64,000 nt of DNA, from positions 1 through 64,000 of the IMG/VR virus record IMGVR_UViG_3300044987_001050. One strand, written 5' to 3'. The stretch is from a virus. The translations under genes were made by a program, and so were the position numbers. The notes beneath the pieces are model-generated. The model searched no databases. It saw only the letters and a list, made by a program, of their open reading frames with translations, and was not told the DNA's origin. This document shows, in pieces, positions 8,435-47,509 of the stretch (positions within the stretch are counted from its first letter, which is position 1; every line of letters starts with the position of its first letter).

Positions 8435-9355
8435 ATGAACATCAAATCACAAACATTTCACCCCTACGTCATTAACTTAAGTCCTGGATTTGCGCCGATG
8501 CCGTCAAACCATGACCCGCTTGAGTTCAACCTCTCGACCTTTCCCGGCGGAGAGCCGCACTTCTTTTTCAAGAATGTCCCGTCAAACGCGCGCGATCTTG
8601 TCATCACTCAACGGTATAACACCGTCGCTGACCTGATGCTTATCATCATCGTGAATGATGCCGCCCGCCGAGCCGGATTCACGAACATCGAGCTGGTGCT
8701 ACCTTACTTCCCAGGAGCAAGACAAGACCGTGTTTGCAATCCTGGCGAGGCGTTGACTGTGAAGGTCTTTGCCGACCTCATCAACGGTTGCAACTTCTCG
8801 AAGGTCTATATTTACTCGCCGCACTCCGAGGTTACACCTGCCGTCATCAATAACGTCGAGTTGATTGAGCGTGACGAGAAGTTCTTGCACGAGCTAATCG
8901 TGAAGTGCAATTACCACACATACAAAGAGATCAACATCGTCTGCCCTGACGCAGGCGCAGGTAAGCGAGTGTCCAAACTCGCGAAGAGTGTCGCCACCGA
9001 ATTTCCTAAACTTAAGGTGAACCTCATTCGGTGTGAGAAGGTTCGCGATGTTGTCACGGGCGAACTCAAGGAGTTCTTCGTGCAAGCGGATAACCTTGAT
9101 TTCTATCCGACAATCATTTGTGATGACATCGTTGCATACGGCGGAACCTTCAGGGGACTTGGTTCGGCTCTTCAGAAAAAGAGCGCGGGCGACCTCACCT
9201 TGTTCACATCTCACGCCGATTGCATCGAAGGCCTTGAAGCGATGGCGAAATACTTCACGCATGTCTTCACGTCCAACTCCAAACAAGACTGGACTTTGTC
9301 GCATCTGCCGCCCAACGTATCCGACAGGTTCACGTGCTTCAAGATCTACCTATAA
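8435..9355 (+). CDS. prs: Ribose-phosphate pyrophosphokinase-like protein (PRPP or ADPR-PP synthetase)
   Basis: A 306-aa phosphoribosyltransferase-fold protein of the Prs family, which transfers pyrophosphate from ATP to C1 of ribose-5-phosphate. LVLPYFPGARQDRVCNPGEA (88-107) matches the PYxxYxRQDR ATP-binding segment. YIYSPHSEVTP (125-135) matches the metal-binding DxH region. CPDAGAGKR and DDIVAYGGT match the later PDxG and PRPP-loop motifs. It is the natural partner of the NAMPT-like gene at 14302. In the described phage NARP1 pathway a Prs homologue makes ADP-ribose-pyrophosphate instead of PRPP; sequence alone does not decide which reaction applies here. Confidence 0.85.
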   Translation: MNIKSQTFHPYVINLSPGFAPMPSNHDPLEFNLSTFPGGEPHFFFKNVPSNARDLVITQRYNTVADLMLIIIVNDAARRAGFTNIELVLPYFPGARQDRVCNPGEALTVKVFADLINGCNFSKVYIYSPHSEVTPAVINNVELIERDEKFLHELIVKCNYHTYKEINIVCPDAGAGKRVSKLAKSVATEFPKLKVNLIRCEKVRDVVTGELKEFFVQADNLDFYPTIICDDIVAYGGTFRGLGSALQKKSAGDLTLFTSHADCIEGLEAMAKYFTHVFTSNSKQDWTLSHLPPNVSDRFTCFKIYL

Positions 9356-14301: not shown

Positions 14302-16164
14302 ATGAAATTGTTTGCACCACTGCTTGTGGACGGTTACAAGACCGGACACAAAGACCAATACCCCGCTAATGCTCGCGTCGTGTTCTCGAACATGACTCCG
14401 CGCGGATCCCGCACAGGACTTGCCTCTGTCATCTTCTTCGGCCTCCAATACTTCCTCAAGGAGTATGTGATCAAGAACTGGAACGACTCGTTCTTCTCCC
14501 AACCGATTGAGTCCGTCGTGAAACGATATGCTCGTCGCCTCAACGGTTACCTCGGCCCGAACGGCATCGGTGACCAACATATTCGCGACCTGCACAAGCT
14601 GGGATATCTCCCGCTTGAGTTCTGGGCATTGCCCGAGGGATCGAACGTACCGCTTCGTGTTCCGATGTATGTCGTGTTCAACACACGGCCTGACGTCATG
14701 CCTGACGCCGTCTTTGCTTGGATCACCAACTCCATCGAGACGATTGCTTCCACCACGATTTGGTTGCCTACTACTTCGGCTACTACTGCGCTCGCGTATC
14801 GCAAGTTGCTCAACCGTTGGGCTAACGACACGAATCCCGAGATGATCGACTTCGTGCCATGGCAAGGACACGACTTCAGTTTCCGCGGCCACACCTCTTG
14901 CGAATCTGCAATCACGTCTGCCGCAGGCCACTTGCTGTCCTTCACCGGCACCGACACGGTCCCAGTGATCGACTTCCTCGAGGAATACTACAACGCGGAT
15001 TCCGACAAGGAACTCGTGGGTGGTTCGGTTGCTGCAACGGAGCACAGCGTCATGTGCATGGGCATGGCTAACGCCAAGGACACCGTGATTCCTGCTCGTG
15101 CAGGCCATCCTCTTCAGGGCGCGCTTGATACATTCAAGGATAAAGCACCGAATCTTTATGATCTTGCTAGCCAAGTTGACGAGACCTTTGACGCTAGTAA
15201 GTCATATAGCTCAACTGACACTGATGGGCATCCGTGGGACTCGTGCTATTACTTCAACGTGTCTGATGGGAAGATCGTTTCTGTTGGAGAAAATACCCCA
15301 CGTGGTGGAGGCAGTTTTTGGACTGAAGGAATGCAATACGATACTCCTGAGCAGATCATCAAGTCTGAAGGCACCGACGAAGTTGAAACCTTCCGCCGCT
15401 TGATCGAAGACCTCTATCCTGCTGGGTTCGTCTCCATCGTGTCCGACACGTGGGACTTCTGGAATGTGGTCGACCCTGAGAACGGCATCTGCGTTCAACT
15501 CAAGGATAAGATCATGGCCCGTGAAGGCAAGGTTGTCATCCGTCCTGACTCCGGAGATCCGGTGAAGATCGTGTCGGGTTATATGCACGACGAGCTCGAT
15601 GTCGACATCCTCGGCAACTACTTCGACCGCGAAACGAAACGGCCGCTGACCGAGAATGAAGTCAAAGGCATGGTCGTCTGCTTGTATGAAATCTTCGGCG
15701 GTTCAGAAACCACGACGGGTTACATCCAACTCGATCCACACATCGGCGCTATCTATGGTGACTCGATCACGCTTGACCGCGCGCAGCAAATCTGTGAACG
15801 TCTCGCGAAGAAAGGGTTTGCCTCGACCAACGTCGTCTTCGGTATCGGTTCATACACCTATCAGTACGTCACACGCGACACCTACGGGTTCGCCGTGAAG
15901 TCCACCTACGGTGAAGTTGAAGATGAAGACGGAACTGTCCGCGGCATCGAGATCTTCAAGGATCCCAAGACCGACGACGGTTTGAAGAAATCTGCGAAGG
16001 GCCTCACCGCCGTCTTCGAGCAGGACGGAACCTTCGTAATGAAGGATCAAGCCACCTGGGATGAAGTCAAGAACTGCGCGTTCGTGAAGGTCTTCTCGAA
16101 TGGTAAGATCACGCGTGACTGGACTCTCGCTGAAGTCCGCGCCACCGTCGCGAAGAACCTGTAA
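14302..16164 (+). CDS. nadV: Nicotinamide phosphoribosyltransferase-like protein with inserted segment
   Basis: A 620-aa NAMPT/NadV-family enzyme; typical members are roughly 460-500 aa. NAMPT makes NMN from nicotinamide and PRPP. Matches include DGYKTGHKDQYP near the start, EFWALPEGSNVPL, ATEHSVM (246-252, with the catalytic-type His at 248), SDTWDFW (381-387), VVIRPDSGDP (411-420) and YGDSITLDR with GSYTYQYVTRDT later. About 105 residues (254-358) between ATEHSVMCMG and the TFRRLI helix are extra. With the Prs-like gene at 8435 this forms an NAD+-making pair; in phage NARP1 the homologue is Namat, which uses ADPR-PP to make NAD+ directly. No promoter of the TTTACA type precedes it; a strong hairpin follows. 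Confidence 0.88.
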   Translation: MKLFAPLLVDGYKTGHKDQYPANARVVFSNMTPRGSRTGLASVIFFGLQYFLKEYVIKNWNDSFFSQPIESVVKRYARRLNGYLGPNGIGDQHIRDLHKLGYLPLEFWALPEGSNVPLRVPMYVVFNTRPDVMPDAVFAWITNSIETIASTTIWLPTTSATTALAYRKLLNRWANDTNPEMIDFVPWQGHDFSFRGHTSCESAITSAAGHLLSFTGTDTVPVIDFLEEYYNADSDKELVGGSVAATEHSVMCMGMANAKDTVIPARAGHPLQGALDTFKDKAPNLYDLASQVDETFDASKSYSSTDTDGHPWDSCYYFNVSDGKIVSVGENTPRGGGSFWTEGMQYDTPEQIIKSEGTDEVETFRRLIEDLYPAGFVSIVSDTWDFWNVVDPENGICVQLKDKIMAREGKVVIRPDSGDPVKIVSGYMHDELDVDILGNYFDRETKRPLTENEVKGMVVCLYEIFGGSETTTGYIQLDPHIGAIYGDSITLDRAQQICERLAKKGFASTNVVFGIGSYTYQYVTRDTYGFAVKSTYGEVEDEDGTVRGIEIFKDPKTDDGLKKSAKGLTAVFEQDGTFVMKDQATWDEVKNCAFVKVFSNGKITRDWTLAEVRATVAKNL

Positions 16165-30574: not shown

Positions 30575-30777
30575 TCAACAACAGCAAGAACGGGCTTTAT
30601 TCAATTGTCGAGCAGTACCAACTGTTCGATGATCGAGAGGAAGCATCACGGCATTACTTCGAAATCGGCGGAGATTCTGGATGGATTTCATTGTCTGATA
30701 AACCTGGCATGGCTTCAATGACTCGGTCTGGCTTGATCGATGTTCTATTCATTCCAATCGTTTCTGAAACTAACTAA
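30559..30777 (+). CDS. Hypothetical protein (72 aa)
   Basis: A small acidic alpha/beta protein overlapping the preceding gene by 16 bases; its stop overlaps the next start (TAATG). Confidence 0.5.
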   Translation: MQYLVINNSKNGLYSIVEQYQLFDDREEASRHYFEIGGDSGWISLSDKPGMASMTRSGLIDVLFIPIVSETN

Positions 30778-31313
30778 TGAGAATCAATCTATACGCCGGG
30801 CCTGGAGCTGGCAAGTCAACTACAGCAGCTATGTTATTCGCAAAGCTGAAAATCGCAGGCTATTCAATTGAGCTTGTCTCGGAATACGTCAAGGCTTGGG
30901 CAATCGCTAAGCGAGCACCGGTCGGATTCGATCAAGTTTATCTGATGGGCAAGCAACTTCAGTATGAGTATCGCTTCCTCTCGAATGGAATTAAGAACGT
31001 GATCACTGACTCGCCTGTGTTGCTTTCAGCATGTTACACTCGCGCGAATTATCCTGACCTCATCAATGTAGCTGATCACATGGACGGCATCGTGATGGAA
31101 TATGAACGGCAACATCCTGCGATTAACATCTTTCTCGATCGCGGAGATAAGGAATACAAGACCGAAGGCCGATTCCAAAGCAAGGAAGGCGCGCAACGGA
31201 TTGACAACGTTGTCCGCGATACGCTCAACAGGCTAGGTTTGGTCTACACAACATTCTCATTCTACGACAACGATGCAATCTTCGAGTTCATCAAAGCAAA
31301 TGCAACCTCATGA
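30777..31313 (+). CDS. P-loop kinase, AAA_28/NadR-kinase-like
   Basis: A 178-aa protein with Walker A GPGAGKST (8-15), EYVKAWA, DQVYLMGKQ and ITDSPVLLS (Walker B-like). This pattern fits the AAA_28 group that includes the ribosylnicotinamide kinase domain of NadR and deoxynucleoside kinases. It sits next to a NADAR gene, so a nucleoside or NR kinase role is attractive but not proven. Confidence 0.7.
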   Translation: MRINLYAGPGAGKSTTAAMLFAKLKIAGYSIELVSEYVKAWAIAKRAPVGFDQVYLMGKQLQYEYRFLSNGIKNVITDSPVLLSACYTRANYPDLINVADHMDGIVMEYERQHPAINIFLDRGDKEYKTEGRFQSKEGAQRIDNVVRDTLNRLGLVYTTFSFYDNDAIFEFIKANATS

Positions 31314-31834
31314 AATCTCCTAAGGATTACGGATACGTCCTACACAAGAACCTCTGCCTCTTTCAGAAGGGACCGCTGTCTCAATGGTGGGGTGGCTACC
31401 CAGGACAGAACTCAAGCTTCGTTCCTGAAGGCGGAGGCGAAACATATAACTGTGCTGAACAATGGATGATGACTGTGAAGGCTGTGTTGATGGGCGATGA
31501 AGAAACCGCTCAGCTTATCCTAGCTGAAAAGAATCCTGCCAATCATAAGGCGCTGGGACGGCAGATCAAAAACTTCGACTCCGCACTTTGGGACAAACAT
31601 AAGGAGAAGGCGGTGTATCTTGGCAACCTCTTCAAGTTCAGACAGAACGCCGACATCCGAGAATTCCTTATCTCCTTTCCGCGCAACACGATCTTTGCTG
31701 AAGCCGCACCTTGGGATAATGTCTGGGGAATCGGACTTGGACCGACTGATCCGGCTGCGCTCGATCAGTCGAAATGGAAGGGTCAAAATCTGCTCGGAAA
31801 GGCGATTCAGAAGGTCCACCGAGAATTGCTGTAA
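31310..31834 (+). CDS. NADAR (YbiA-like) protein, copy 1
   Basis: A 174-aa NADAR domain. YNCAEQWMMTVKA (46-58, E50), AAPWDNVWGIGLG (132-144) and KGQNLLGKA (157-165) match the family (aEqwm..KA, D..WG.G, NxLG). NADAR proteins act on NAD- or ADP-ribose-linked substrates: YbiA cleaves a riboflavin intermediate, and NADARs near DarT1 remove ADP-ribose from guanine in DNA. A second copy is at 40758. Followed by terminator and promoter. Confidence 0.85.
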   Translation: MKSPKDYGYVLHKNLCLFQKGPLSQWWGGYPGQNSSFVPEGGGETYNCAEQWMMTVKAVLMGDEETAQLILAEKNPANHKALGRQIKNFDSALWDKHKEKAVYLGNLFKFRQNADIREFLISFPRNTIFAEAAPWDNVWGIGLGPTDPAALDQSKWKGQNLLGKAIQKVHRELL

Positions 31835-35906: not shown

Positions 35907-35935
35907 TTTACATCCTCACCAAAATTTGATATAAT
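35907..35935 (+). promoter_or_regulatory. Consensus sigma70-type promoter, leaderless
   Basis: TTTACA (35907-35912), 17-base spacer ending TTTGA, perfect TATAAT (35930-35935). ATG at 35943 lies 7 bases after the -10 box, on the expected start point. Clear leaderless candidate. Confidence 0.9.
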
Positions 35936-37979: not shown

Positions 37980-38344
37980 TGTGTTTCATCCCGCCGCCTG
38001 CGCCACCTGCACCTCCGTCGCCTCGCAATATAGTTCACTGCCGAGGTTGCAACTCTCTAGTTGATGCTAGCGTCTGGGGAGACCTTTGCTCAATTTGTGT
38101 TGTCACTGGAGGAAAAAGTCCTCCGGCTGTAGAAGAGACTGTCTCACCTGGGTGGCATCCAACATCAATTCAAATAAAAGGTTGGGAACCTACATTACGT
38201 CCACAACGACCACTCCGAACGTCTCGTGAAGTTGTTTGTGAATCGCCTAAGGCGCCGATGTCATTCCAAGAGGAGATGGACGCAGCTCTTGCCTTTAATC
38301 CATTACAAGATTTGATTTTACAACGCACGAAGAATGTGATATAA
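37979..38344 (+). CDS. Zinc-ribbon protein with Pro-rich start
   Basis: A 121-aa protein: Pro-rich N-terminus (MCFIPPPAPPAPPSP), a zinc ribbon of CRGC near residue 21 and CSIC near residue 37, then a low-complexity C-terminus whose codons overlap the next promoter. Function unknown. Confidence 0.6.
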   Translation: MCFIPPPAPPAPPSPRNIVHCRGCNSLVDASVWGDLCSICVVTGGKSPPAVEETVSPGWHPTSIQIKGWEPTLRPQRPLRTSREVVCESPKAPMSFQEEMDAALAFNPLQDLILQRTKNVI

Positions 38345-38345
38345 T
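38317..38345 (+). promoter_or_regulatory. Consensus promoter for hydroxymethylase gene, leaderless
   Basis: TTTACA (38317-38322), 17-base spacer ending GTGA, TATAAT (38340-38345). ATG at 38353, 7 bases after the -10 box. It overlaps the 3' end of the upstream gene. Confidence 0.88.
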
Positions 38346-38352
38346 TACTAAT

Positions 38353-39102
38353 ATGCTACCAATCTATAAAGTTGCCGACATTCGGCAAGCATTCGTTGAA
38401 AAATACCTAAGAGGAGATATCGTAACAAATGACACAGGTTCGTTGTCCGGTGCTGATACAGTCGAGATCCTCGGCGCTTCATTCATTGCTGACGAGTCTG
38501 CAATCTTTGGTGTACCCAACTATCCTTACATCCAAAACGAGATTGATTGGTACATCTCGAAGTCGCTCAACGTGAATGACATTCCTGGCGAGGTGCCTAA
38601 GATCTGGAAGGCGGTTGCTTCTCCTGATGGTCTCATCAACTCGAACTACGGGTACCTCATCTTCTCCAAAGAAAACGGTGCACAGGTTTGCAATGTCATC
38701 GACACGCTATTGCAGTCGCCGTCGTCTCGACGTGCAACAATGATCTACACGCGGCCGACAATGCATGTTGATTTCAACACGAATGGCATGCAAGATTTCG
38801 TTTGCACGAACGCCGTGCAGTACATCATTCGCAACAATCGACTGCACGTGATCGTTCAGATGCGCTCTAACGACGCATGGGCAGGCTTCCGCAATGACCT
38901 GGCTTGGCAACTCTTCGTTCAGAAGTTTGTGCTTTATGCTTTGAATGCGCCACGTTTCAACAGCTTATATGAGCTAGGTGATGTTCATTGGCAGGTGTCA
39001 TCGTTGCACGTCTACCAACGCCAATTCTATTTGCTCGATCACTTCGCGAAGACGGGCGAACACCACATCACGCTCGAAAACTATAACAAGCTTTACAAAT
39101 GA
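38353..39102 (+). CDS. Deoxycytidylate hydroxymethylase-like (thymidylate synthase family)
   Basis: A 249-aa ThyA-fold protein. INSNYGY (95-101), SRRA (125-128), a Cys in DFVCTNAVQY (C151, the nucleophile position) and RSNDAWAGFRNDLAW (171-185) align with TS. In that last block D182 falls where TS has the Asn that reads dUMP (E. coli N177). T4 dCMP hydroxymethylase has Asp there, and this switch selects dCMP. ThyX is encoded separately at 51569, so this gene is not needed for dTMP. Predicted product is 5-hydroxymethyl-dCMP for modified DNA. The start is fixed by the promoter. Confidence 0.8.
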   Translation: MLPIYKVADIRQAFVEKYLRGDIVTNDTGSLSGADTVEILGASFIADESAIFGVPNYPYIQNEIDWYISKSLNVNDIPGEVPKIWKAVASPDGLINSNYGYLIFSKENGAQVCNVIDTLLQSPSSRRATMIYTRPTMHVDFNTNGMQDFVCTNAVQYIIRNNRLHVIVQMRSNDAWAGFRNDLAWQLFVQKFVLYALNAPRFNSLYELGDVHWQVSSLHVYQRQFYLLDHFAKTGEHHITLENYNKLYK

Positions 39103-40497: not shown

Positions 40498-40825
40498 AGA
40501 AGACCTCCAAGAAATCGTTGACTTGTCCGATATGTTAACGACCGACATCGAAAGTTTCATCGGCGAGTTCAACGATGAACTAACGAGAAGTCGACTCACG
40601 GAAATCATGCGAATGTACTTCGTTAGAGTTCGCGCGATAACACGTCTTCCGATTGACATCAACAAGATTGGGTTGTGCAACATCAGTAAGATAGCGCCAA
40701 CTATTGGATCTGACTTTGGTTTACCTACAGACAGATCTGAAAACGAAATAAGAGCTAATGCATACACCCAAAGTGCCTTTCGAGATATCTCCCGCATTAT
40801 TGAAGACAATCAAGTTTCGTCCTGA
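40490..40825 (+). CDS. Hypothetical protein (111 aa)
   Basis: A soluble helical protein. Its 3' end overlaps the NADAR gene by 68 bases. No family recognised. Confidence 0.5.
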   Translation: MHKEDLQEIVDLSDMLTTDIESFIGEFNDELTRSRLTEIMRMYFVRVRAITRLPIDINKIGLCNISKIAPTIGSDFGLPTDRSENEIRANAYTQSAFRDISRIIEDNQVSS

Positions 40826-41285
40826 TGGGTACGTGGACAATTGGTTCTCGAACATGTTACCATTCGATCACCCGCTTGTCGTTGACGGAATAACATACTT
40901 CTCGGTCGAGAATTTTTACCAAGCTTCAAAGATTGAGGCATACCGGCGCGAGTTGCGCGTCGAGATTGCAAGCATGAGCCCGCCTAAGTCGAAGGCATGC
41001 TTCCGGAGGGAACCTGACAAGTTTGTCGTGATGCAGGATTGGACGACGGGCCGCAAGCTCCGAACAATGCAGTATGCGCTCAACTGGAAGTTCTTGCCAG
41101 GCACGTCATGGCACGAGAAGCTTATGCAAACCCAAGCCGATCCTATCATTGAGTTCAACAACTGGAACGACACGTTCTGGGGCTGGGACATCAGGAAGGA
41201 GACAGGCTCAAATCATTTAGGCAGACTACTGATGGAAATGCGCGCGCGGTTTGCTCAAAGCACGCTCGACTCTTTCATGTCATAA
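40758..41285 (+). CDS. NADAR (YbiA-like) protein, copy 2
   Basis: A 175-aa NADAR domain closer to the family consensus than copy 1: NWFSNMLPF (28-36), SVENFYQASK (49-58, E51), NNWNDTFWGWD (134-144) and NHLGRLLME (152-160). The start at 40758 overlaps the previous gene by 68 bases, but no nearer ATG keeps the FSNM element. Possible roles are ADP-ribose removal from DNA or a nucleotide N-glycosidase. It sits inside the DNA-modification block, unlike copy 1. Confidence 0.85.
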   Translation: MHTPKVPFEISPALLKTIKFRPDGYVDNWFSNMLPFDHPLVVDGITYFSVENFYQASKIEAYRRELRVEIASMSPPKSKACFRREPDKFVVMQDWTTGRKLRTMQYALNWKFLPGTSWHEKLMQTQADPIIEFNNWNDTFWGWDIRKETGSNHLGRLLMEMRARFAQSTLDSFMS

Positions 41286-41290
41286 TGTTA

Positions 41291-41319
41291 TTTACATATG
41301 ACGTCCAATAGTGTATAAT
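41291..41319 (+). promoter_or_regulatory. Consensus promoter, leaderless
   Basis: TTTACA (41291-41296), 17-base spacer, TATAAT (41314-41319). ATG at 41327, 7 bases after the -10 box. It drives the DUF1599-to-glycosyltransferase run. Confidence 0.88.
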
Positions 41320-41326
41320 CATAAAA

Positions 41327-41695
41327 ATGGAAATACTCAGCGTTAACACAGTAAAAGAAACCGAAGCGATGCGCGTCCTTGACGAGTGCCGTGCAACGAT
41401 GGAAAAGAAGGGGAACGATTATCAGAATCCGCACTCGCGTATTCGACAAGCGGACTATTATCCTGCAGGCGTTGCGACGATACTTGACATCGTGCATGCC
41501 AAGGTTCTCCGCATGAGGTCCGTCATCGAAGCGATGGAGAACGATCCTAACTACGTCCCCAACTTCGAATCGTTCGAAGACTCATGCAAGGATGCAATCA
41601 ATTACCTTGCCTTCGGTGTCTCATACTCTCGCGGCAAGATTGATGGCCAAGATCCTTCGCGAGATTTTCTTAACCGCATGACACGCAAAGCATGA
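41327..41695 (+). CDS. DUF1599 nucleotide-modification-associated protein
   Basis: A 122-aa helical protein with KKGNDYQN, ATILDIVHAKVLRMRS and FEDSCKDAINYLAFG. This fits DUF1599 (nucleotide modification associated domain 1), which in phages often sits next to genes for modified nucleotides. The exact activity is unknown. Placement directly before the sugar cassette strengthens that link. Confidence 0.75.
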   Translation: MEILSVNTVKETEAMRVLDECRATMEKKGNDYQNPHSRIRQADYYPAGVATILDIVHAKVLRMRSVIEAMENDPNYVPNFESFEDSCKDAINYLAFGVSYSRGKIDGQDPSRDFLNRMTRKA

Positions 41696-42204
41696 ACATA
41701 ACATGTCCTTTCAGGCACGTCGTCACCGACGTTGATGGTGTCCTCACGGACGGTTCATTTCATTATTCCCCTGACGGTAAAACGCACAAGGTCTTTGGGC
41801 CGCATGATTCTGACGGTGTCAAGATCTTTCGTCGTTTGGGAATTGCTGTCTATGCGATCTCGGCGGATAAGCGTGGGTTTCCAATCACGCTAGCGAGGAT
41901 GAATGACATGAATGTCCCCATTGAATATGTTACTGAGAACAACCGATATCGGTTTGTCGCAGATAAGTTTGTGTTAGGCGATACATGCTTCATCGGTGAT
42001 GGCATTTTCGACGCGGCCCTCCTCGCGGATTGTTCATTCTCGTTCTCTCCATCGAACGCGCCTGACTTCGTTCGACAATATGCTAAGCACAACTGCAAAG
42101 CCCGCGGCGGTAACGGTGTCCTTCTTGAAGCAGCACTATATACTATCAGCACCTGGTTCCCCAATGAACTTGATGCCCTACTTAAAGACCTAAGACTACT
42201 ATGA
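41692..42204 (+). CDS. KdsC-like HAD phosphatase
   Basis: A 170-aa cap-less HAD of the KdsC/YrbI type: DVDGVLTDG (13-21), a long Gly-Pro-containing loop (FGPHDSDGVKIFRRLGI), AISADKRG and FIGDGIFDAAL for motif IV. KdsC removes phosphate from 8-carbon KDO-8-P; related enzymes act on other sugar phosphates. Here it may free a pentose or hexose before re-activation by the kinase-transferase fusion. ATGA-coupled both sides. Confidence 0.8.
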   Translation: MNITCPFRHVVTDVDGVLTDGSFHYSPDGKTHKVFGPHDSDGVKIFRRLGIAVYAISADKRGFPITLARMNDMNVPIEYVTENNRYRFVADKFVLGDTCFIGDGIFDAALLADCSFSFSPSNAPDFVRQYAKHNCKARGGNGVLLEAALYTISTWFPNELDALLKDLRLL

Positions 42205-42725
42205 AGATCATCCTCGACGAAATGACTCGAATGGGCGACGCCCTCGACACAAAAGAAGTTCAGACATACGTTAACTCTCTCGCGTATAGGTTAATATCCA
42301 AGCCAGCTATCGTAGGTCTCGCGGCGGGTCGTATGGGATACGCGTTGCGAGCATTCATCATGCGCCTCAATCACATGGGTTTCAACGCAAGCATGATAGG
42401 CGACACGAACGTCCCTCTTATCACCGCGAATGATATCGTGCTCGTGAACAGTTCATCAGGTGAAACTCCGTCGATCCTTTTGTATGTTAAGCAAGCCCGT
42501 GACGCAGGTTCGCGTGTTTACACGACGACGTGCAACCCGATGTCGTCCATCGGCAGACTATCACATGAAGTTATTCCTCTCCCGAAAATCAATTCGGTTC
42601 AGCTGATGAAGTCGGCTTACGAACAATTCTCGATGCTGTTATATGATCACATCGTCATGGAGCTTTCATCAAAACTAAACCTAGACCCTGAGTTCACGAC
42701 TCATAATCACTCAATCCTCGAATAA
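42201..42725 (+). CDS. SIS-domain sugar-phosphate isomerase (HxlB/KdsD-like)
   Basis: A 174-aa SIS domain: GLAAGRMGYALRAFIMRLNH, GDTNVPLITANDIVLVNSSS and SGET, followed by TTTCNPMSSIG and a C-terminal helical pair. Closest in pattern to 6-phospho-3-hexuloisomerase, and also to arabinose-5-phosphate isomerase (KdsD core). It would interconvert a ketose phosphate and an aldose or other ketose phosphate. Confidence 0.8.
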   Translation: MKIILDEMTRMGDALDTKEVQTYVNSLAYRLISKPAIVGLAAGRMGYALRAFIMRLNHMGFNASMIGDTNVPLITANDIVLVNSSSGETPSILLYVKQARDAGSRVYTTTCNPMSSIGRLSHEVIPLPKINSVQLMKSAYEQFSMLLYDHIVMELSSKLNLDPEFTTHNHSILE

Positions 42726-43417
42726 TGAAACCTATCTTCGGCGCATCAGTTATATGCATGGATCACCTCAACCTCGAACGCGATGTTCGGTTGTGTGCTG
42801 AACTCGGAGTCGACTACCTCCACCTCGACGCAATGGACGGCCATGCCGTTCCTCGTTATGGTGTCTATCCTGAGCAGGTTGCACGCATCGCGACCATCAC
42901 TGACCTCCCGCTTGACCTTCACCTCATGGTGTCGGATGTCGAGTTCGCGATTAGTCAGTTCGATATCTCGAAGGTCAGGACAGTAACATTCCACTTGAAC
43001 GGTAATGAAGGGCGAGCGCTTTACCTCATGGACAAGATTCGTGAAAAAGGAGCACGGCCAGGCCTTGTCATGAACCTTGACATGCCGCTCTACGCGTTGC
43101 ACCGCTTGATTGACAACGGAGAACTTGACCTCGTGATGTTCATGGGTATTCATCCTGGTGTACTCGTTCAAACGGCACGTCCTGAAACAGTTACTGATGA
43201 CATATTCGGCTTCCTCTCGGTTTATCCTAACGTCGAGATCCAAATCGACGGCGCTCTTAACTTCGACACCTTCGAACAATTTAGGAACGACGGCGTTGAT
43301 TCATTCGTCGGCGGGACGGGCACTATATATAAGAACGTAGATCGCAACACAAACTGGGAAACCCAAGAAGCGATCATCCGCACGAACATGCAACGCATCA
43401 AATCATTTCTCCAGTAA
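42725..43417 (+). CDS. Ribulose-phosphate 3-epimerase-family protein
   Basis: A 230-aa TIM-barrel epimerase. YLHLDAMDGHAVPRYG (31-46) is the RPE metal-site signature (hLDxMDGxFVPN variant). LDLHLMV and FMGIHPG are further matches, and QIDGALNF with VGGTGTIY supply the phosphate-binding end. RPE swaps ribulose-5-P and xylulose-5-P; allulose-6-P epimerases are related. The VPRY variant differs from the usual VPN, so substrate may differ too. Confidence 0.8.
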   Translation: MKPIFGASVICMDHLNLERDVRLCAELGVDYLHLDAMDGHAVPRYGVYPEQVARIATITDLPLDLHLMVSDVEFAISQFDISKVRTVTFHLNGNEGRALYLMDKIREKGARPGLVMNLDMPLYALHRLIDNGELDLVMFMGIHPGVLVQTARPETVTDDIFGFLSVYPNVEIQIDGALNFDTFEQFRNDGVDSFVGGTGTIYKNVDRNTNWETQEAIIRTNMQRIKSFLQ

Positions 43418-45000
43418 TGTATAAAGTCGTAATCCCATCTGCCGGGTTAGGTTCACGCGTCGCCGCGCATTCGCCTAACATCAACAAAGCACTAATCACG
43501 ATTGGCAACAAGCCTGTCATCTCGCACGTCATCGACAAGTTCAAGAAGGACGTCGAGATCGTTGTGTTATTAGGTCATCACGGATCTTACGTAAGGCAAT
43601 CGCTCGAGGCGATCTATCCTGACCGTAAGATCTCTTTCGTTGACGTCGAGCTTTATCAAGGTGAAGGATCCGGACTTGGTCTTACGTTAGGATGCGCCGA
43701 ACATCTGTTGCAGTGCCCATTCATATTCATCTCGAACGACACAATCATTCCTGATGAAGTCATTGATCTTGACCCTAACATCACGGGCAATTGGATGGCT
43801 TACTATACCGCGACAAAAGCTGACTCGTTTAACACGTCGGTCTACCGCACCGTCGAGATTGACAACGGTGTTGTGACAAACATCAACCCGAAGGGAATCG
43901 TATGCCCTAACATTTATGTTGGTCTATGCGGTGTCAAAGATTATGACGGTTTCTGGAAGAGCATGGACAACCCGCGTGCGATTCCTGTCGGCGAATCATA
44001 CGGGCTTAAGTTTCTCAATAACATCAAAGCGATTCCTGTCCCATCATGGTGCGACACCGGGAACGTCGAATCACTTCTTAAGACGCGTGAACTGCTAGAG
44101 ACTCACGAGTTCAACATCGTTCACAAGAATGATGAGGCTATCTGGTTTTACGATAACCGCGTGATCAAGTTCAGTGTTGACGATAAGTTCATTGCTGATC
44201 GAGTCAAGCGCCTTCAAGGATTGGGCAATCAAATCTTTCCTTCACTGATCCACGTTGACAAGAACCTCTACGTCTATAACCGAATCGTCGGCGATGTTGT
44301 AAGCAAGACACTCAATGGGACTAACGTCATCGACATCCTCGACTTCGCGAAGAAGGAGATGTGGGATAACACTTCGAATGCTACGCCTGAACTCGTCGAG
44401 GCGTGTTATTCGTTCTACCGTGATAAGACGTTCAAGCGTGTCCAACAATTCTTCGACGTCTTTGAGTGTGTTGACACGGTGGACACGATTAACGGCGTGA
44501 CGATTCCGCCAATGTATGTGCTGCTTAATCGCGTTGATTGGCGCGACCTATGTGATCATCCGCATGCCTCGAAGTATCATGGCGACTTCCACAACGAAAA
44601 CATTCTAGTCACGCCGTCCGGCAATCCAATGCTGATCGACTGGCGCCAAAACTTTGGGTATGATAACCTAGACATCGGCGATGCATACTATGACTTCGCT
44701 AAGTTCATGCACGGGCTCATTGTTTCTCACCATCAGATTTTGTGCAACCACTTTACGGTCGAGCGAGATTCCTCGAATAACATCACGATAGATATTTTAC
44801 GGCCACACCGTTTAGTCGAAGCTGAGGAGACGTTCGTGAAGTGGCTGAAGGAGAATAATTATGACGCATCGCGCGTGAGATTGCTTACCGCACTAATCTT
44901 CCTGAACATCGCAGCGCTTCATGAGTATCCTTACTCGCTATACCTATTCTATCTTGGCAAACATCTACTGAACAAATACCTAGTCTCGACACTATCATGA
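43417..45000 (+). CDS. Nucleotidyltransferase-kinase fusion (MurU-AmgK-like)
   Basis: A 527-aa two-domain enzyme. Residues 1-225: sugar-1-phosphate nucleotidyltransferase (AGLGSR 9-14, PNINKALITIGNKPVI, SNDTIIP). Residues 230-527: aminoglycoside/choline-kinase fold with catalytic HGDFHNEN (388-395) and the metal Asp in LIDW (D408). MurU and AmgK of murein recycling are separate proteins of just these two families, in which a kinase phosphorylates the anomeric carbon and a transferase makes an NDP-sugar. Here both steps are fused. The sugar is unknown. Confidence 0.82.
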   Translation: MYKVVIPSAGLGSRVAAHSPNINKALITIGNKPVISHVIDKFKKDVEIVVLLGHHGSYVRQSLEAIYPDRKISFVDVELYQGEGSGLGLTLGCAEHLLQCPFIFISNDTIIPDEVIDLDPNITGNWMAYYTATKADSFNTSVYRTVEIDNGVVTNINPKGIVCPNIYVGLCGVKDYDGFWKSMDNPRAIPVGESYGLKFLNNIKAIPVPSWCDTGNVESLLKTRELLETHEFNIVHKNDEAIWFYDNRVIKFSVDDKFIADRVKRLQGLGNQIFPSLIHVDKNLYVYNRIVGDVVSKTLNGTNVIDILDFAKKEMWDNTSNATPELVEACYSFYRDKTFKRVQQFFDVFECVDTVDTINGVTIPPMYVLLNRVDWRDLCDHPHASKYHGDFHNENILVTPSGNPMLIDWRQNFGYDNLDIGDAYYDFAKFMHGLIVSHHQILCNHFTVERDSSNNITIDILRPHRLVEAEETFVKWLKENNYDASRVRLLTALIFLNIAALHEYPYSLYLFYLGKHLLNKYLVSTLS

Positions 45001-46238
45001 ATATTCTAATCGGCAAAACAGGCCGCTCTATTTACTTCAACTCGAACAGTCGTGGGTTCACGGCCGGTGATGAAGAGGCGCCTATGTTATATCGGCTCCT
45101 CGCGAAAAGAAATCCCGAGCATACGTTCTATCTTATCGGCAGGTCCGACATTACACGGATGCGTGACAAGGAGACGACGGGTTCGCTATCATCCTTCTTC
45201 GATGAAGTTGAGGAGGAAGAAATCGACGAAGGTTTGCCGCCTAACATAATCAACCTCTTCGACGACTGGACGAACAAGGTTACGATTGATGATCATGTTT
45301 GGCTCGAGGAAAAGATTCGTCGACTGGACCTGAAGTTCGATGCAGGTGTTATTTTCATCGGACCTACGCCAGCCGTGGGAATTCCTAATGTAGGCATTGA
45401 ACGCCTTGACGGAAAAGGAAAGGCGAAGACACTGGAGATGTTTCAAAAGTACTATGCTGGCATTGTGCATACGCTCAATTGGACGAACACGCCGTTCATC
45501 TCAATATGTTCAGACCCTAAGTATGCTCCGCAATACGCACGCGATATCATCAATGATGAACGGGTAGTGCTTAGTCAAATCAACCAAACATACGCGCGCA
45601 AACGAATCAAGTCATACGAGGAGTCGTTGACGTTGCGTGACGTCAAGCTGAAGTACATTTACTCCGGAATCGAAACTGTCTTCCTGCTTGGCGAGAAAAA
45701 GATTGAATGGCTTGACCGTCCAAAGACGAACAAGTTTGTCATTGGCCTTAATGGCGGTCTATCTCGTGATGAGTTCATCAAGGATTGGATTCTCAAGGGT
45801 GATACGACGGGCATTAAGGTTTATGGCGAATGGGCGGACGAGTTCACGACGGGTTGGCCCGATGTCTTTGAGAACAAGAGTATCCGGTCGGTCGAGGACG
45901 TGTTCCTCAATTCGCGTTACACGATCATTGCGCCTCCGCATAAACCAACAGGAAACTTCGTAACTCAAAAGTTCTGGAAGATGATTTACTATGGCATCAT
46001 CCCGTTCTTCCATCCAAATTACGATACCGACAACATCTTCAACGTGCCAGCTATCCTTCGAGTTAAGACACCCAAGGATATGTGGGAACGAATCAAATTC
46101 CTTGACGAGAATCCCGAGACATATAAGCTCGTGCAGAAGCGGCTGTATGACATGCTTGACGACAGCTACTTCAACGGAGACTTCCTTTACAACGTCGTCA
46201 AGACGAACCTCGAGCAGTACACCGGCGTCGTTCTATAA
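44997..46238 (+). CDS. Glycosyltransferase-like protein (GT-B type)
   Basis: A 413-aa protein ATGA-coupled to the NDP-sugar enzyme. The N-terminal half has alternating strands and helices typical of a Rossmann domain (FYLIGRSDIT, DAGVIFIGPTPAVG). The C-terminal half (FVIGLNGGLS, IKVYGEWADEF, YTIIAPPHKPTGNF, YYGIIPFFHP) resembles the donor-binding domain of GT-B glycosyltransferases, including phage DNA glucosyltransferases. Overall identity to a known family cannot be shown by eye. It is the obvious user of the NDP-sugar. Confidence 0.65.
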   Translation: MNILIGKTGRSIYFNSNSRGFTAGDEEAPMLYRLLAKRNPEHTFYLIGRSDITRMRDKETTGSLSSFFDEVEEEEIDEGLPPNIINLFDDWTNKVTIDDHVWLEEKIRRLDLKFDAGVIFIGPTPAVGIPNVGIERLDGKGKAKTLEMFQKYYAGIVHTLNWTNTPFISICSDPKYAPQYARDIINDERVVLSQINQTYARKRIKSYEESLTLRDVKLKYIYSGIETVFLLGEKKIEWLDRPKTNKFVIGLNGGLSRDEFIKDWILKGDTTGIKVYGEWADEFTTGWPDVFENKSIRSVEDVFLNSRYTIIAPPHKPTGNFVTQKFWKMIYYGIIPFFHPNYDTDNIFNVPAILRVKTPKDMWERIKFLDENPETYKLVQKRLYDMLDDSYFNGDFLYNVVKTNLEQYTGVVL

Positions 46239-46258: not shown

Positions 46259-47509
46259 ATGAATAAACAAACCAAAATTACATACGCGCCAATCATCCCG
46301 CTAATCGGTGGTGAACCTCTGGGTGTTATGACAGCACTCAATGGGCAACTGCCTGAGTATGTGTTATCATATTCGCCTTTCGCCGACAACGATTCGCACT
46401 ACATCAAATATCTCCGTGATGTTAAGGGATTCACGGGTGACTATGCTGTCATCGATGATCCTGCATTCGAGAACTATGTTCCAAAGCAGGTTGATGTTGT
46501 CATGAGCACTTGCCCGTGTGCAGGCTTGTCGTCGTTGTCCGTTGCATCGTCAGCTGATTCGCCCGTGAACGAATGGCTTTACACCTCGGCTGAGTATGTG
46601 TTATCTACCGTGAAGCCCAAGGTCTTCTGGGGAGAAAACGCGCCGCGTCTATTCTCATCGTTCGGTAAGCCCGTTGCTGATAAGCTTCATGCAATCGGTA
46701 AGAAGTACGGATATTCGCTCAACCTTTACTACACGGAGTCTAAGCTGCATGGCCTTTGCCAGAAGCGTCCGCGTACATTCTACTTCTTCACACAATCCGA
46801 AGTTGCTCCTATCTTCAAAACCTGGAGACGCGATCTCAATCCTGTTGAGGACATCCTCAAGAAGAAGACACTCAAGAAGGATCCAATGAATGTTCTCATC
46901 AACAAAGCGGACCCAATGGATAACCCATGGGTTGCATACGCGGTTGAGAAGGTCGGCGGCGGAACACTCAAAGGTGTTTATGATTACATCGAAGAAACGC
47001 AGAACCTCATCAACGGTGCGGACGGCGACTTCGGTCAGTCACTCCCAGAGGTTGCTGATTGGATGGACGCACAGGACAAACCTACGTTCTCGCATGTCGC
47101 GAAGCGCGCACGCGCAATGCAAGGCAAGCTTGATGACGGCAAAGGTTATTGGTCGCACGGCGTCACGATGTCGAAGGGTGCTATCCCATCGTTGATCGGC
47201 GCAATGCCAGGTTCGTTAATCAATCCATTCACAGGGACATTCCTAACACTTCGTGATTGTCTTCGAATCATGGGTATGCCCGAGGACTTCAATCTCGCGT
47301 CCGAGAATCCTGTTTCGAAGTCTAACCACATTTGTCAGAACGTGCCGGTGACAACTGCGCGTGACATGATGGACGGCATTCTTCAATACTTGAACGACGA
47401 TTGCGAGTTCTCTAACTCCGATTACATCAAGCAGTCTAACCGAAACTTCTCGGTCATCTCAGTCAACGCCCAAAAGGAAACTACGGCGTCCCTTGATTCC
47501 TTCTTCTAA
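46259..47509 (+). CDS. C5-cytosine methyltransferase-like protein
   Basis: A 416-aa protein with a recognisable C5-MTase motif series: PLIGGEPLG (motif I), CPCAGLS (motif IV, C87 as nucleophile), GENAP (126-130, ENV-like motif VI), QKRPRTF (168-174, motif VIII), FLTLRDCLRIMGMPEDF (motif IX-like) and CQNVPV (motif X-like). Such enzymes form 5-methylcytosine, and relatives are rewired to make other C5 groups. In a genome with a hydroxymethylase this may modify leftover cytosine or have another C1 donor. Confidence 0.78.
   Translation: MNKQTKITYAPIIPLIGGEPLGVMTALNGQLPEYVLSYSPFADNDSHYIKYLRDVKGFTGDYAVIDDPAFENYVPKQVDVVMSTCPCAGLSSLSVASSADSPVNEWLYTSAEYVLSTVKPKVFWGENAPRLFSSFGKPVADKLHAIGKKYGYSLNLYYTESKLHGLCQKRPRTFYFFTQSEVAPIFKTWRRDLNPVEDILKKKTLKKDPMNVLINKADPMDNPWVAYAVEKVGGGTLKGVYDYIEETQNLINGADGDFGQSLPEVADWMDAQDKPTFSHVAKRARAMQGKLDDGKGYWSHGVTMSKGAIPSLIGAMPGSLINPFTGTFLTLRDCLRIMGMPEDFNLASENPVSKSNHICQNVPVTTARDMMDGILQYLNDDCEFSNSDYIKQSNRNFSVISVNAQKETTASLDSFF

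What the first reader, a model, noticed from the sequence alone, without database searches (positions are those of the whole stretch)
41327..46238. Six-gene cassette for making and using an activated sugar
DUF1599, KdsC-like phosphatase, SIS isomerase, RPE-type epimerase, NTase-kinase fusion and GT-like protein overlap like one operon behind one promoter. In order they could convert a ketose phosphate to a free sugar, phosphorylate C1, form an NDP-sugar and transfer it. Next to a hydroxymethylase, the acceptor is likely 5-hydroxymethylcytosine, analogous to arabinosylated DNA in T4-like RB69. The enzyme set and fusion look new.
Basis: inference. Interest (0 to 1): 0.92.

Follow-up and report, generated by a model that had tools for sequence, protein, structure and literature searches.

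The report
Phage sugar-on-DNA donor gene cassette
An uncultured phage carries a tight operon that very probably builds an unusual activated sugar and attaches it to hydroxymethylated cytosines in its own DNA; the general trick is known from phages T4 and RB69, but this way of making the sugar, and probably the sugar itself, has not been described in phage DNA.

Summary
Six overlapping genes lie at 41327-46238, downstream of an exact TTTACA-N17-TATAAT promoter that also precedes the phage's hydroxymethylase. That hydroxymethylase is 55% identical to T4 gp42 and has the dCMP-type Asp. The last gene, unmatched by Pfam or PHROGs, folds with high confidence; its six best PDB matches are all T4 DNA beta-glucosyltransferase. 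In viral contigs found by the isomerase or epimerase alone, those with this transferase carry a dCMP-type hydroxymethylase wherever testable (12 of 12); the four without it lack one (0 of 4). The phosphatase-isomerase-epimerase-NTase/kinase set also occurs in bacterial glycan clusters. So the phage probably recruited a bacterial nucleotide-sugar cassette to decorate 5-hydroxymethylcytosine.

The NTase-kinase fusion is not new (RB69, Thanatos, many bacteria). RB69's arabinose is now reported on 5-hydroxycytosine. The isomerase is HxlB-like, not arabinose-5-phosphate isomerase; with the epimerase, this points to a C3-epimerised sugar (xylose/lyxose or allose/altrose type), not arabinose. The sugar's identity is not shown. 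New variant of a known kind.

The parts
38317..38345 (+). promoter-like site TTTACA-N17-TATAAT before the hydroxymethylase
   Evidence: one of only three exact copies in the window, 0.00 expected in shuffles
38353..39102 (+). dCMP hydroxymethylase (thymidylate synthase family, T4 gp42 type), makes 5-hydroxymethyl-dCMP
   Evidence: 55% identity to T4 gp42 over 213 aa, E 4e-85; Cys146, Thr147 and Asp177 (E. coli ThyA numbering) conserved
41291..41319 (+). promoter-like site TTTACA-N17-TATAAT at the head of the cassette
41327..41695 (+). DUF1599 / Nmad1-like protein, nucleotide-modification associated; probably part of the hydroxymethyl-dCMP supply, not of the sugar route. Relatives suggest the real start may be about 14 codons downstream
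   Evidence: 7 of 13 relatives match PF07659, best E 2e-7; near the HMase in 27 of 29 testable loci; no relation to T4 gp56 dCTPase detected
41692..42204 (+). KdsC/KDN9P-type HAD phosphatase; predicted to remove the terminal phosphate of the sugar phosphate
   Evidence: NCBIfam E 6.5e-22 and 2e-16; PDB KdsC E 2e-30; DxD and GDxxxD motifs invariant
42201..42725 (+). SIS-domain sugar-phosphate isomerase of the HxlB/6-phospho-3-hexuloisomerase type
   Evidence: TIGR03127 E 1e-33, below cut-off; PDB YckF/HxlB 1.5e-45 against KdsD 2e-6; family alignment with invariant His and Glu
42725..43417 (+). ribulose-phosphate / allulose-6-phosphate 3-epimerase family protein
   Evidence: PF00834 E 1e-34; His33, Asp35, His66 and Asp175 invariant in phage relatives; PDB RPE and AlsE 1e-45 to 1e-48
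43417..44106 (+). N-terminal nucleotidyltransferase domain of the fusion (boundary approximate)
   Evidence: PDB HddC, GalU, LicC, RmlA; GxGxR...K signature, Asp108 and Asp213 invariant
44107..45000 (+). C-terminal APH-type kinase domain of the fusion; predicted anomeric (C1) sugar kinase
   Evidence: PF01636 E 6e-6; HGDxxxEN and DxRQ motifs invariant; model pLDDT 88.8
44997..46238 (+). DNA glycosyltransferase, distant relative of T4 beta-glucosyltransferase
   Evidence: model pLDDT 87.1, pTM 0.87; Foldseek top six PDB matches all T4 BGT, best E 1.7e-8; family profile against PDB best hit T4 BGT E 6e-4; hhalign against T4 BGT E 1.5e-5
46259..47509 (+). cytosine-C5-methyltransferase homologue, constant neighbour of the hydroxymethylase; role unknown
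   Evidence: PF00145 E 3e-14; 29 of 29 testable loci also carry the dCMP hydroxymethylase; catalytic motifs kept, motif I altered

Best explanation
The locus is the sugar arm of a T4-like DNA hypermodification. Upstream, a dCMP hydroxymethylase makes 5-hydroxymethyl-dCMP, which is phosphorylated and polymerised into phage DNA. The operon makes the donor in five steps: (1) the RPE-family enzyme epimerises C3 of a host ketose phosphate; (2) the HxlB-like SIS enzyme isomerises the product; (3) the KdsC-like phosphatase frees the sugar; (4) the kinase domain phosphorylates C1; (5) the fused nucleotidyltransferase forms an NDP-sugar. The last protein, with the fold of T4 beta-glucosyltransferase, transfers that sugar to the hydroxymethyl group of cytosine in DNA, which should shield the DNA from nucleases. 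Shown by computation: families, motifs, the transferase fold, operon and promoter structure, conserved linkage. Inferred: the order of reactions, the substrates, the sugar, and protection. If the start is ribulose-5-P the product would be a xylose- or lyxose-type pentose; if fructose-6-P, an allose- or altrose-type hexose. I slightly favour a pentose.
For: Hydroxymethylase: 55% identical to T4 gp42 but only 25% to the RB69 relative. All 69 phage-side relatives carry Asp177, Cys146 and Thr147; Asn177 to Asp is the documented switch to dCMP (PMC8670742). Transferase: T4 BGT is the top match by profile, aligns by profile-profile comparison, and fills the top six places by fold. Linkage, seeded only by the isomerase or epimerase: 21 contigs, 14 with the transferase, 3 cut off before it could be seen, 4 without it. 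A dCMP-type TS relative is on 12 of 12 testable contigs with the transferase and on 0 of 4 without it. No glycan export genes were recognised around the window cassette; the neighbours are UvsX, DnaB-like helicase and ThyX. The separate ThyX leaves the TS-family enzyme free for hydroxymethylation. Bacterial clusters hold the same four genes without hydroxymethylase, transferase or C5-MTase homologue. In IMG/VR the slot between hydroxymethylase and C5-MTase homologue holds alternative donor genes: a HAD-APH protein plus a CTP_transf_like cytidylyltransferase, with or without a GalE-like epimerase. The shared exact promoter precedes both hydroxymethylase and cassette.
Against: No chemistry was measured and the virus is uncultured. 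Pfam matches of the transferase family are to generic Glyco_trans_1_2 and GT10, not to the T4 family, and identity to T4 BGT is about 10%. The ribose-binding Glu272 of T4 BGT (role from memory) is Lys in the window protein. All module contigs share ancestry, so the counts are not independent. The SIS and RPE scores fall below the curated equivalog cut-offs, so their substrates are open. A host RPE exists already, so why the phage carries one is inferred.
Confidence: 0.8

Rival explanations
1. The cassette makes D-arabinose, as in RB69: ribulose-5-P to arabinose-5-P by the SIS enzyme, phosphatase, C1 kinase, NTase, transfer to cytosine. The RPE only feeds ribulose-5-P.
For: Same overall logic and a related NTase-kinase in RB69, whose DNA carries arabinose (PMC6024577, PMC13390438). 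RPE could draw from xylulose-5-P.
Against: The SIS enzyme family matches HxlB at 1.5e-45 and the arabinose-5-P isomerase KdsD only at 2e-6. RB69 has a KdsD/GutQ-like SIS, no RPE or KdsC-like neighbour was matched there, and its transferase ORF003c is not hit by the window transferase profile.
Confidence: 0.2
2. The activated sugar goes to a host surface glycan (lipopolysaccharide or capsule) to block superinfection, as with seroconverting phages.
For: The same four genes sit in bacterial surface-glycan clusters, and viral glycan clusters carry the NTase-kinase or the SIS-RPE pair as well (L267, L268).
Against: Viral contigs with the BGT-like transferase carry the dCMP-type hydroxymethylase in 12 of 12 testable cases, those without the transferase in 0 of 4. 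The transferase folds like T4 BGT. No flippase, polymerase or other glycosyltransferases were recognised next to the window cassette.
Confidence: 0.08
3. The transferase uses host UDP-glucose and the four enzymes serve something else, such as sugar salvage for energy or PRPP during infection.
For: T4 needs no donor genes; the window phage also carries PRPP synthetase and NAMPT homologues, so it manipulates pentose and NAD metabolism.
Against: The genes overlap with each other and with the transferase and are conserved beside it across divergent contigs (NTase-kinase down to 38% identity). A fused nucleotidyltransferase has no place in salvage. Other phages of this kind have other donor-making genes in the same slot.
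Confidence: 0.08
4. The acceptor is 5-hydroxycytosine (RB69 type) rather than 5-hydroxymethylcytosine.
For: RB69 and relatives use a thymidylate-synthase relative to make 5-hydroxy-dCMP (PMC13390438), and some distant modules (L022, L034, L039) have diverged TS-family enzymes.
Against: The window enzyme is 55% identical to T4 gp42 and 25% to RB69 ORF048c.
Confidence: 0.07

Closest known systems
T4 dCMP hydroxymethylase (gp42) plus DNA beta-glucosyltransferase
   Same: Hydroxymethylase 55% identical with the dCMP-type Asp; transferase shares the BGT fold and aligns over BGT residues 87-332.
   Different: T4 uses host UDP-glucose and has no donor-making genes. The transferase is only about 10% identical and has Lys at the position of T4 Glu272.
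RB69 / Mosigvirus arabinosyl-cytosine module (ORF053c-052c, ORF055c, ORF048c, ORF003c) and Shewanella phage Thanatos TH1_060-TH1_063
   Same: NTase-kinase fusion of the same family (iterated profile E 3e-50 and 1e-79), a SIS isomerase in RB69, a TS-family cytosine enzyme, location near UvsX and replication genes in RB69.
   Different: KdsD-like rather than HxlB-like SIS; no RPE or KdsC-like neighbour matched; transferase ORF003c not matched; acceptor now reported as 5-hydroxycytosine (PMC13390438).
Bacterial KdsC-SIS-RPE-NTase/kinase cassettes in glycan clusters (Ignavibacteriae L182, SAR86 L191, Clostridia L192/L205/L216/L221, L241, L242, Chlamydiae L246)
   Same: The same four families; the same gene order in L182 and L191.
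   Different: No hydroxymethylase, no BGT-like transferase and no C5-MTase homologue; glycan-cluster genes are the neighbours where seen.
Pseudoalteromonas phage vB_Psh_XG4 and Enterococcus Denvervirus 9183 / Planchet loci
   Same: TS-family enzyme with Asp177, NTase-kinase and the same transferase family, in this order; XG4 also has the C5-MTase homologue.
   Different: No KdsC-SIS-RPE; they have a small HAD protein and a second glycosyltransferase-like or nucleotide-sugar-synthetase-like protein.

Membership tests
T4-type 5-hydroxymethylcytosine synthesis (dCMP hydroxymethylase) | TS fold with catalytic Cys and Asp at ThyA position 177; close to gp42 | tested here: met
   55% identity, Cys146, Asp177
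T4-type 5-hydroxymethylcytosine synthesis (dCMP hydroxymethylase) | dCTPase and hydroxymethyl-dCMP kinase encoded as well | tested here: inconclusive
   A thymidylate-kinase-like gene is at 30777-31313; no gp56-like dCTPase recognised; DUF1599 is not related to gp56 by hhalign; not every gene was scanned and 19 kb of the record was not read
DNA beta-glucosyltransferase (T4 BGT) family | fold of T4 BGT | tested here: met
   top six PDB matches, E 1.7e-8 to 3.3e-7, TM 0.45-0.63
DNA beta-glucosyltransferase (T4 BGT) family | match to family sequence models and active-site residues | tested here: inconclusive
   profile E 6e-4 and hhalign E 1.5e-5 to T4 BGT, but Pfam prefers Glyco_trans_1_2 / GT10, and T4 Glu272 is Lys
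DNA beta-glucosyltransferase (T4 BGT) family | transfer of a sugar to 5hmC in DNA | not testable with these tools
   needs enzymology
RB69-type arabinosylation | NTase-kinase fusion plus SIS isomerase beside the cytosine enzyme | tested here: met
RB69-type arabinosylation | KdsD-like arabinose-5-phosphate isomerase | tested here: not met
   HxlB 1.5e-45 against KdsD 2e-6
RB69-type arabinosylation | ORF003c-type arabinosyltransferase | tested here: not met
   no match between the window transferase profile and ORF003c
RB69-type arabinosylation | arabinose on cytosine in virion DNA | not testable with these tools
   uncultured virus
6-phospho-3-hexuloisomerase (HxlB) | NCBIfam equivalog cut-off (160 bits) | tested here: not met
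   116.7 bits; so subfamily resemblance, not necessarily the same function
Ribulose-phosphate 3-epimerase | family fold and metal-binding His/Asp set | tested here: met
   below the equivalog cut-off of rpe (115.9 against 212.6 bits), so the substrate is open
Host surface-glycan modification cassette | export, polymerase or membrane glycosyltransferase genes alongside | tested here: not met
   none of these recognised around the window cassette among the genes scanned

The most novel reading that the evidence does not exclude
Phages with this locus carry, on 5-hydroxymethylcytosine, a sugar not yet reported in DNA (not glucose, gentiobiose or arabinose). It is made from a C3-epimerised ketose phosphate by a cassette captured from bacterial glycan pathways, and the slot between hydroxymethylase and C5-MTase homologue is a general docking site where different donor-sugar cassettes are exchanged.
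Probability: 0.5. Interest if true: 0.75.

Novelty: new variant of a known kind. Interest (0 to 1): 0.62.

Why it matters
It would show that phages assemble DNA-glycosylation systems from interchangeable parts: a fixed core (hydroxymethylase, DUF1599, BGT-like transferase, C5-MTase homologue) plus a donor-sugar cassette taken from bacterial surface-glycan pathways. It predicts a family of unknown sugar-modified cytosines in uncultured phages, gives a concrete gene list for each, and offers new DNA glycosyltransferases as reagents. It makes the open question of how phages make non-glucose donors for DNA directly testable by five-step reconstitution.

Tried and rejected
Reading DUF1599 as a sugar enzyme or as a T4 gp56-type dCTPase: hhalign found no relation to gp56 (E 0.53), no solved relative was found, and it sits near the hydroxymethylase where this cassette is absent.

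Reading the transferase as an RB69 ORF003c relative: no match.

Finding the cassette in cultured phages: RPE and SIS searches of 50,697 phage records returned only distant matches (23-34% identity), mostly in fragments or bacterial-looking records, and none of these records is among the few that hold the NTase-kinase family.

Identifying the sugar from bacterial clusters: the neighbours (glycan genes, a Methyltransf_23 protein, and a GatZ/KbaZ-like aldolase in clusters that lack SIS/RPE) gave no known sugar; a literature search for the HxlB plus RPE combination in O-antigen clusters gave nothing.

Reading the NTase donor nucleotide from solved relatives: HddC, LicC, GalU and RmlA are all comparable, so UDP, CDP, GDP and dTDP stay open.

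Searching the window record with the T4 BGT protein directly found nothing; the relation appears only with a family profile or fold.

Gene trees: 9 of 10 phage NTase-kinases form a clade and L040 groups with Firmicutes, but the RPE, SIS and KdsC trees are not congruent enough to claim one transfer of the whole block.

The 2025 preprint on glycosylated 5-hydroxycytosine biosynthesis cited in PMC13390438 was not held, so its pathway could not be compared.
Full report
OBSERVATION. The window is part of an 83,186-base virus record. Directly upstream (41291-41319) is TTTACA-N17-TATAAT. The pattern occurs exactly three times in the window against 0.00 expected in shuffles; a second copy is directly before the hydroxymethylase at 38353. 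The third copy precedes an RNA-ligase-like gene. The operon does not stop at 46238: a cytosine-C5-methyltransferase homologue follows after 20 bp and UvsX after another 22 bp.

WHAT THE GENES ARE. Gene 1 is DUF1599-like: the window protein itself does not reach Pfam, but 7 of 13 relatives match PF07659, 'Nucleotide modification associated domain 1'. Gene 2 belongs to the KdsC/KDN-9-phosphatase group of HAD phosphatases, with both Asp motifs invariant. Gene 3 is a SIS enzyme whose nearest characterised group is HxlB: solved relative YckF at 1.5e-45, arabinose-5-phosphate isomerase KdsD at 2e-6. It stays below the HxlB equivalog cut-off. Gene 4 is an RPE-family epimerase with its His/Asp metal ligands invariant. 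Gene 5 is a two-domain protein: a sugar-1-phosphate nucleotidyltransferase like HddC/GalU/LicC and an APH-type kinase, both with intact motifs. Gene 6 had no Pfam or PHROG match.

THE TRANSFERASE. A family of 25 relatives from IMG/VR gave a confident model of gene 6 (pLDDT 87.1, pTM 0.87). Its six best matches among 350,542 solved chains are all T4 DNA beta-glucosyltransferase, best E 1.7e-8. The family profile searched against the PDB puts the same enzyme first at 6e-4, and hhalign gives 1.5e-5 over T4 residues 87-332. In the viral structure library the second match is a protein annotated as DNA beta-glucosyltransferase. Caution: individual members score weakly with generic Glyco_trans_1_2 and GT10 in Pfam, and identity to T4 BGT is about 10%. 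T4 Arg269 and Glu272 correspond to Lys325 and Lys328 in the window protein. Lys or Ser stands at the Glu272 position in every transferase beside a KdsC-type cassette except one of two in L033, whereas the readable transferases beside other donor genes have Glu. I read this as donor specificity; it is inference, and shared ancestry may explain it.

THE ACCEPTOR. The TS-family protein at 38353-39102 is 55% identical to T4 gp42 (E 4e-85) but only 25% to its RB69 counterpart. All 69 phage-side relatives compared have Cys146, Thr147 and Asp177 where E. coli thymidylate synthase has Cys, His and Asn. Asn177 to Asp is the documented change from dUMP to dCMP (PMC8670742). The phage has a separate ThyX, so thymidylate synthesis does not need this enzyme. 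5-Hydroxymethyl-dCMP is therefore the expected product.

CONSERVATION AND SPECIFICITY. Searching IMG/VR with the NTase-kinase, transferase or C5-MTase homologue returned many contigs with the same order: hydroxymethylase, (DUF1599), KdsC, SIS, RPE, NTase-kinase, transferase, C5-MTase homologue. Searching only with the SIS or RPE family gave 21 contigs. Fourteen have the BGT-like transferase, three end before it could be seen, four lack it. On the twelve contigs with the transferase that are long enough to test, all carry a dCMP-type TS relative. The four without the transferase carry none on 76 to 208 kb of sequence. Three of those four place the SIS-RPE pair among glycan-cluster or tail-region genes. 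The contigs are related, so this is a strong association and not a formal probability.

ORIGIN. Bacteria from several phyla hold the same four genes in glycan clusters, with identical order in an Ignavibacteriae and a SAR86 genome, and never with the hydroxymethylase, transferase or C5-MTase homologue in the 80 loci examined. Nine of ten phage NTase-kinases form one clade; one (L040) groups with Firmicutes. Recruitment of a bacterial cassette is the simplest reading.

A DOCKING SLOT. Other phage contigs keep the core (hydroxymethylase, DUF1599, BGT-like transferase, C5-MTase homologue) but hold different donor genes: a HAD-APH protein with a CTP_transf_like cytidylyltransferase (L113, L116), the same plus a GalE-like epimerase (L107), or only a distant NTase-kinase (L105, L106, L110, L128). 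The HAD-APH label is by eye from motifs; Pfam did not match those two proteins. This argues that the middle genes make the donor.

THE SUGAR. Arabinose needs only ribulose-5-P and a KdsD-like isomerase. Here the isomerase is of another type and an epimerase is added. The most economical reading is a product that differs at C3: xylose or lyxose from xylulose-5-P, or allose/altrose from allulose-6-P. HxlB and AlsE act on hexulose 6-phosphates and RPE on pentulose 5-phosphates (established family knowledge), so both remain open. The nucleotide of the donor is also open.

COMPARISON. It works like a cross between T4 (hydroxymethylase and BGT fold) and RB69 (phage-made donor through an NTase-kinase). 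It is not a member of the RB69 system, because the isomerase type and the transferase tested here do not match. The NTase-kinase fusion is not new: RB69 ORF53_52c, Thanatos TH1_060, Denvervirus and many bacterial proteins are relatives. What is new is the four-enzyme donor route in a phage DNA-modification locus, which no cultured phage in 50,697 records shows.

VERDICT. Real, conserved, and most likely a DNA glycosylation system with a new donor route; sugar unknown. New variant of a known kind. Confidence 0.8 for sugar-on-5hmC by this route, 0.5 for a sugar not yet seen in DNA.

Noticed in passing
window 46259-47509; relatives L016, L033, L105-L178, L259: A cytosine-C5-methyltransferase homologue is tied to the dCMP hydroxymethylase (29 of 29 testable loci), which is odd for a phage that should have replaced cytosine. 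The family keeps the catalytic Cys, ENAP, QxRxR and QNVP, but motif I reads PLIGG and the match to known enzymes starts after it. It may use another cofactor or act on 5hmC itself.
   Followed up: partly
L107, L113, L116, L105, L106, L110, L128: The slot between hydroxymethylase and C5-MTase homologue holds different donor-making genes in different phages, including a HAD-APH protein with a cytidylyltransferase, with or without a GalE-like epimerase.
   Followed up: partly
window 44997-46238, residue Lys328; A6: The residue at the position of T4 BGT Glu272 is Lys or Ser in transferases beside KdsC-type cassettes (one exception in L033) and Glu in the readable ones beside other donor genes.
   Followed up: partly
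window 35907-35935, 38317-38345, 41291-41319: Three exact TTTACA-N17-TATAAT sites, none expected by chance, each just upstream of a gene (RNA ligase-like, hydroxymethylase, cassette): probably one class of early promoter.
   Followed up: partly
window 8435-9355, 14302-16164, 31310-31834, 40758-41285: PRPP synthetase-like, NAMPT-like and two related proteins (PHROG 1017), one of them matching the NADAR domain: an NAD-salvage and possible counter-defence set in the same phage.
   Followed up: no
bacterial loci L179, L183, L193, L196, L204: The NTase-kinase also sits with a KdsC-like phosphatase and a GatZ/KbaZ-like aldolase-subunit protein plus a cupin-like protein instead of SIS and RPE, suggesting a second bacterial route to a sugar for the same enzyme.
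   Followed up: no
L016 10834-13259; L033 1234-9996: Some modules carry two C5-MTase homologues, and L033 also two BGT-like transferases, perhaps two modifications in one phage.
   Followed up: no
L266 (207 kb contig): A complete KdsC-SIS-RPE-NTase/kinase set without the transferase or hydroxymethylase lies between large genes that look like tail or fibre genes; maybe glycosylation of virion proteins.
   Followed up: no
RB69 ORF050c (L010 4493-5662): By eye this protein resembles U32 peptidase-family enzymes; since RB69 DNA is now reported to contain 5-hydroxycytosine, it may be worth a look (not tested).
   Followed up: no
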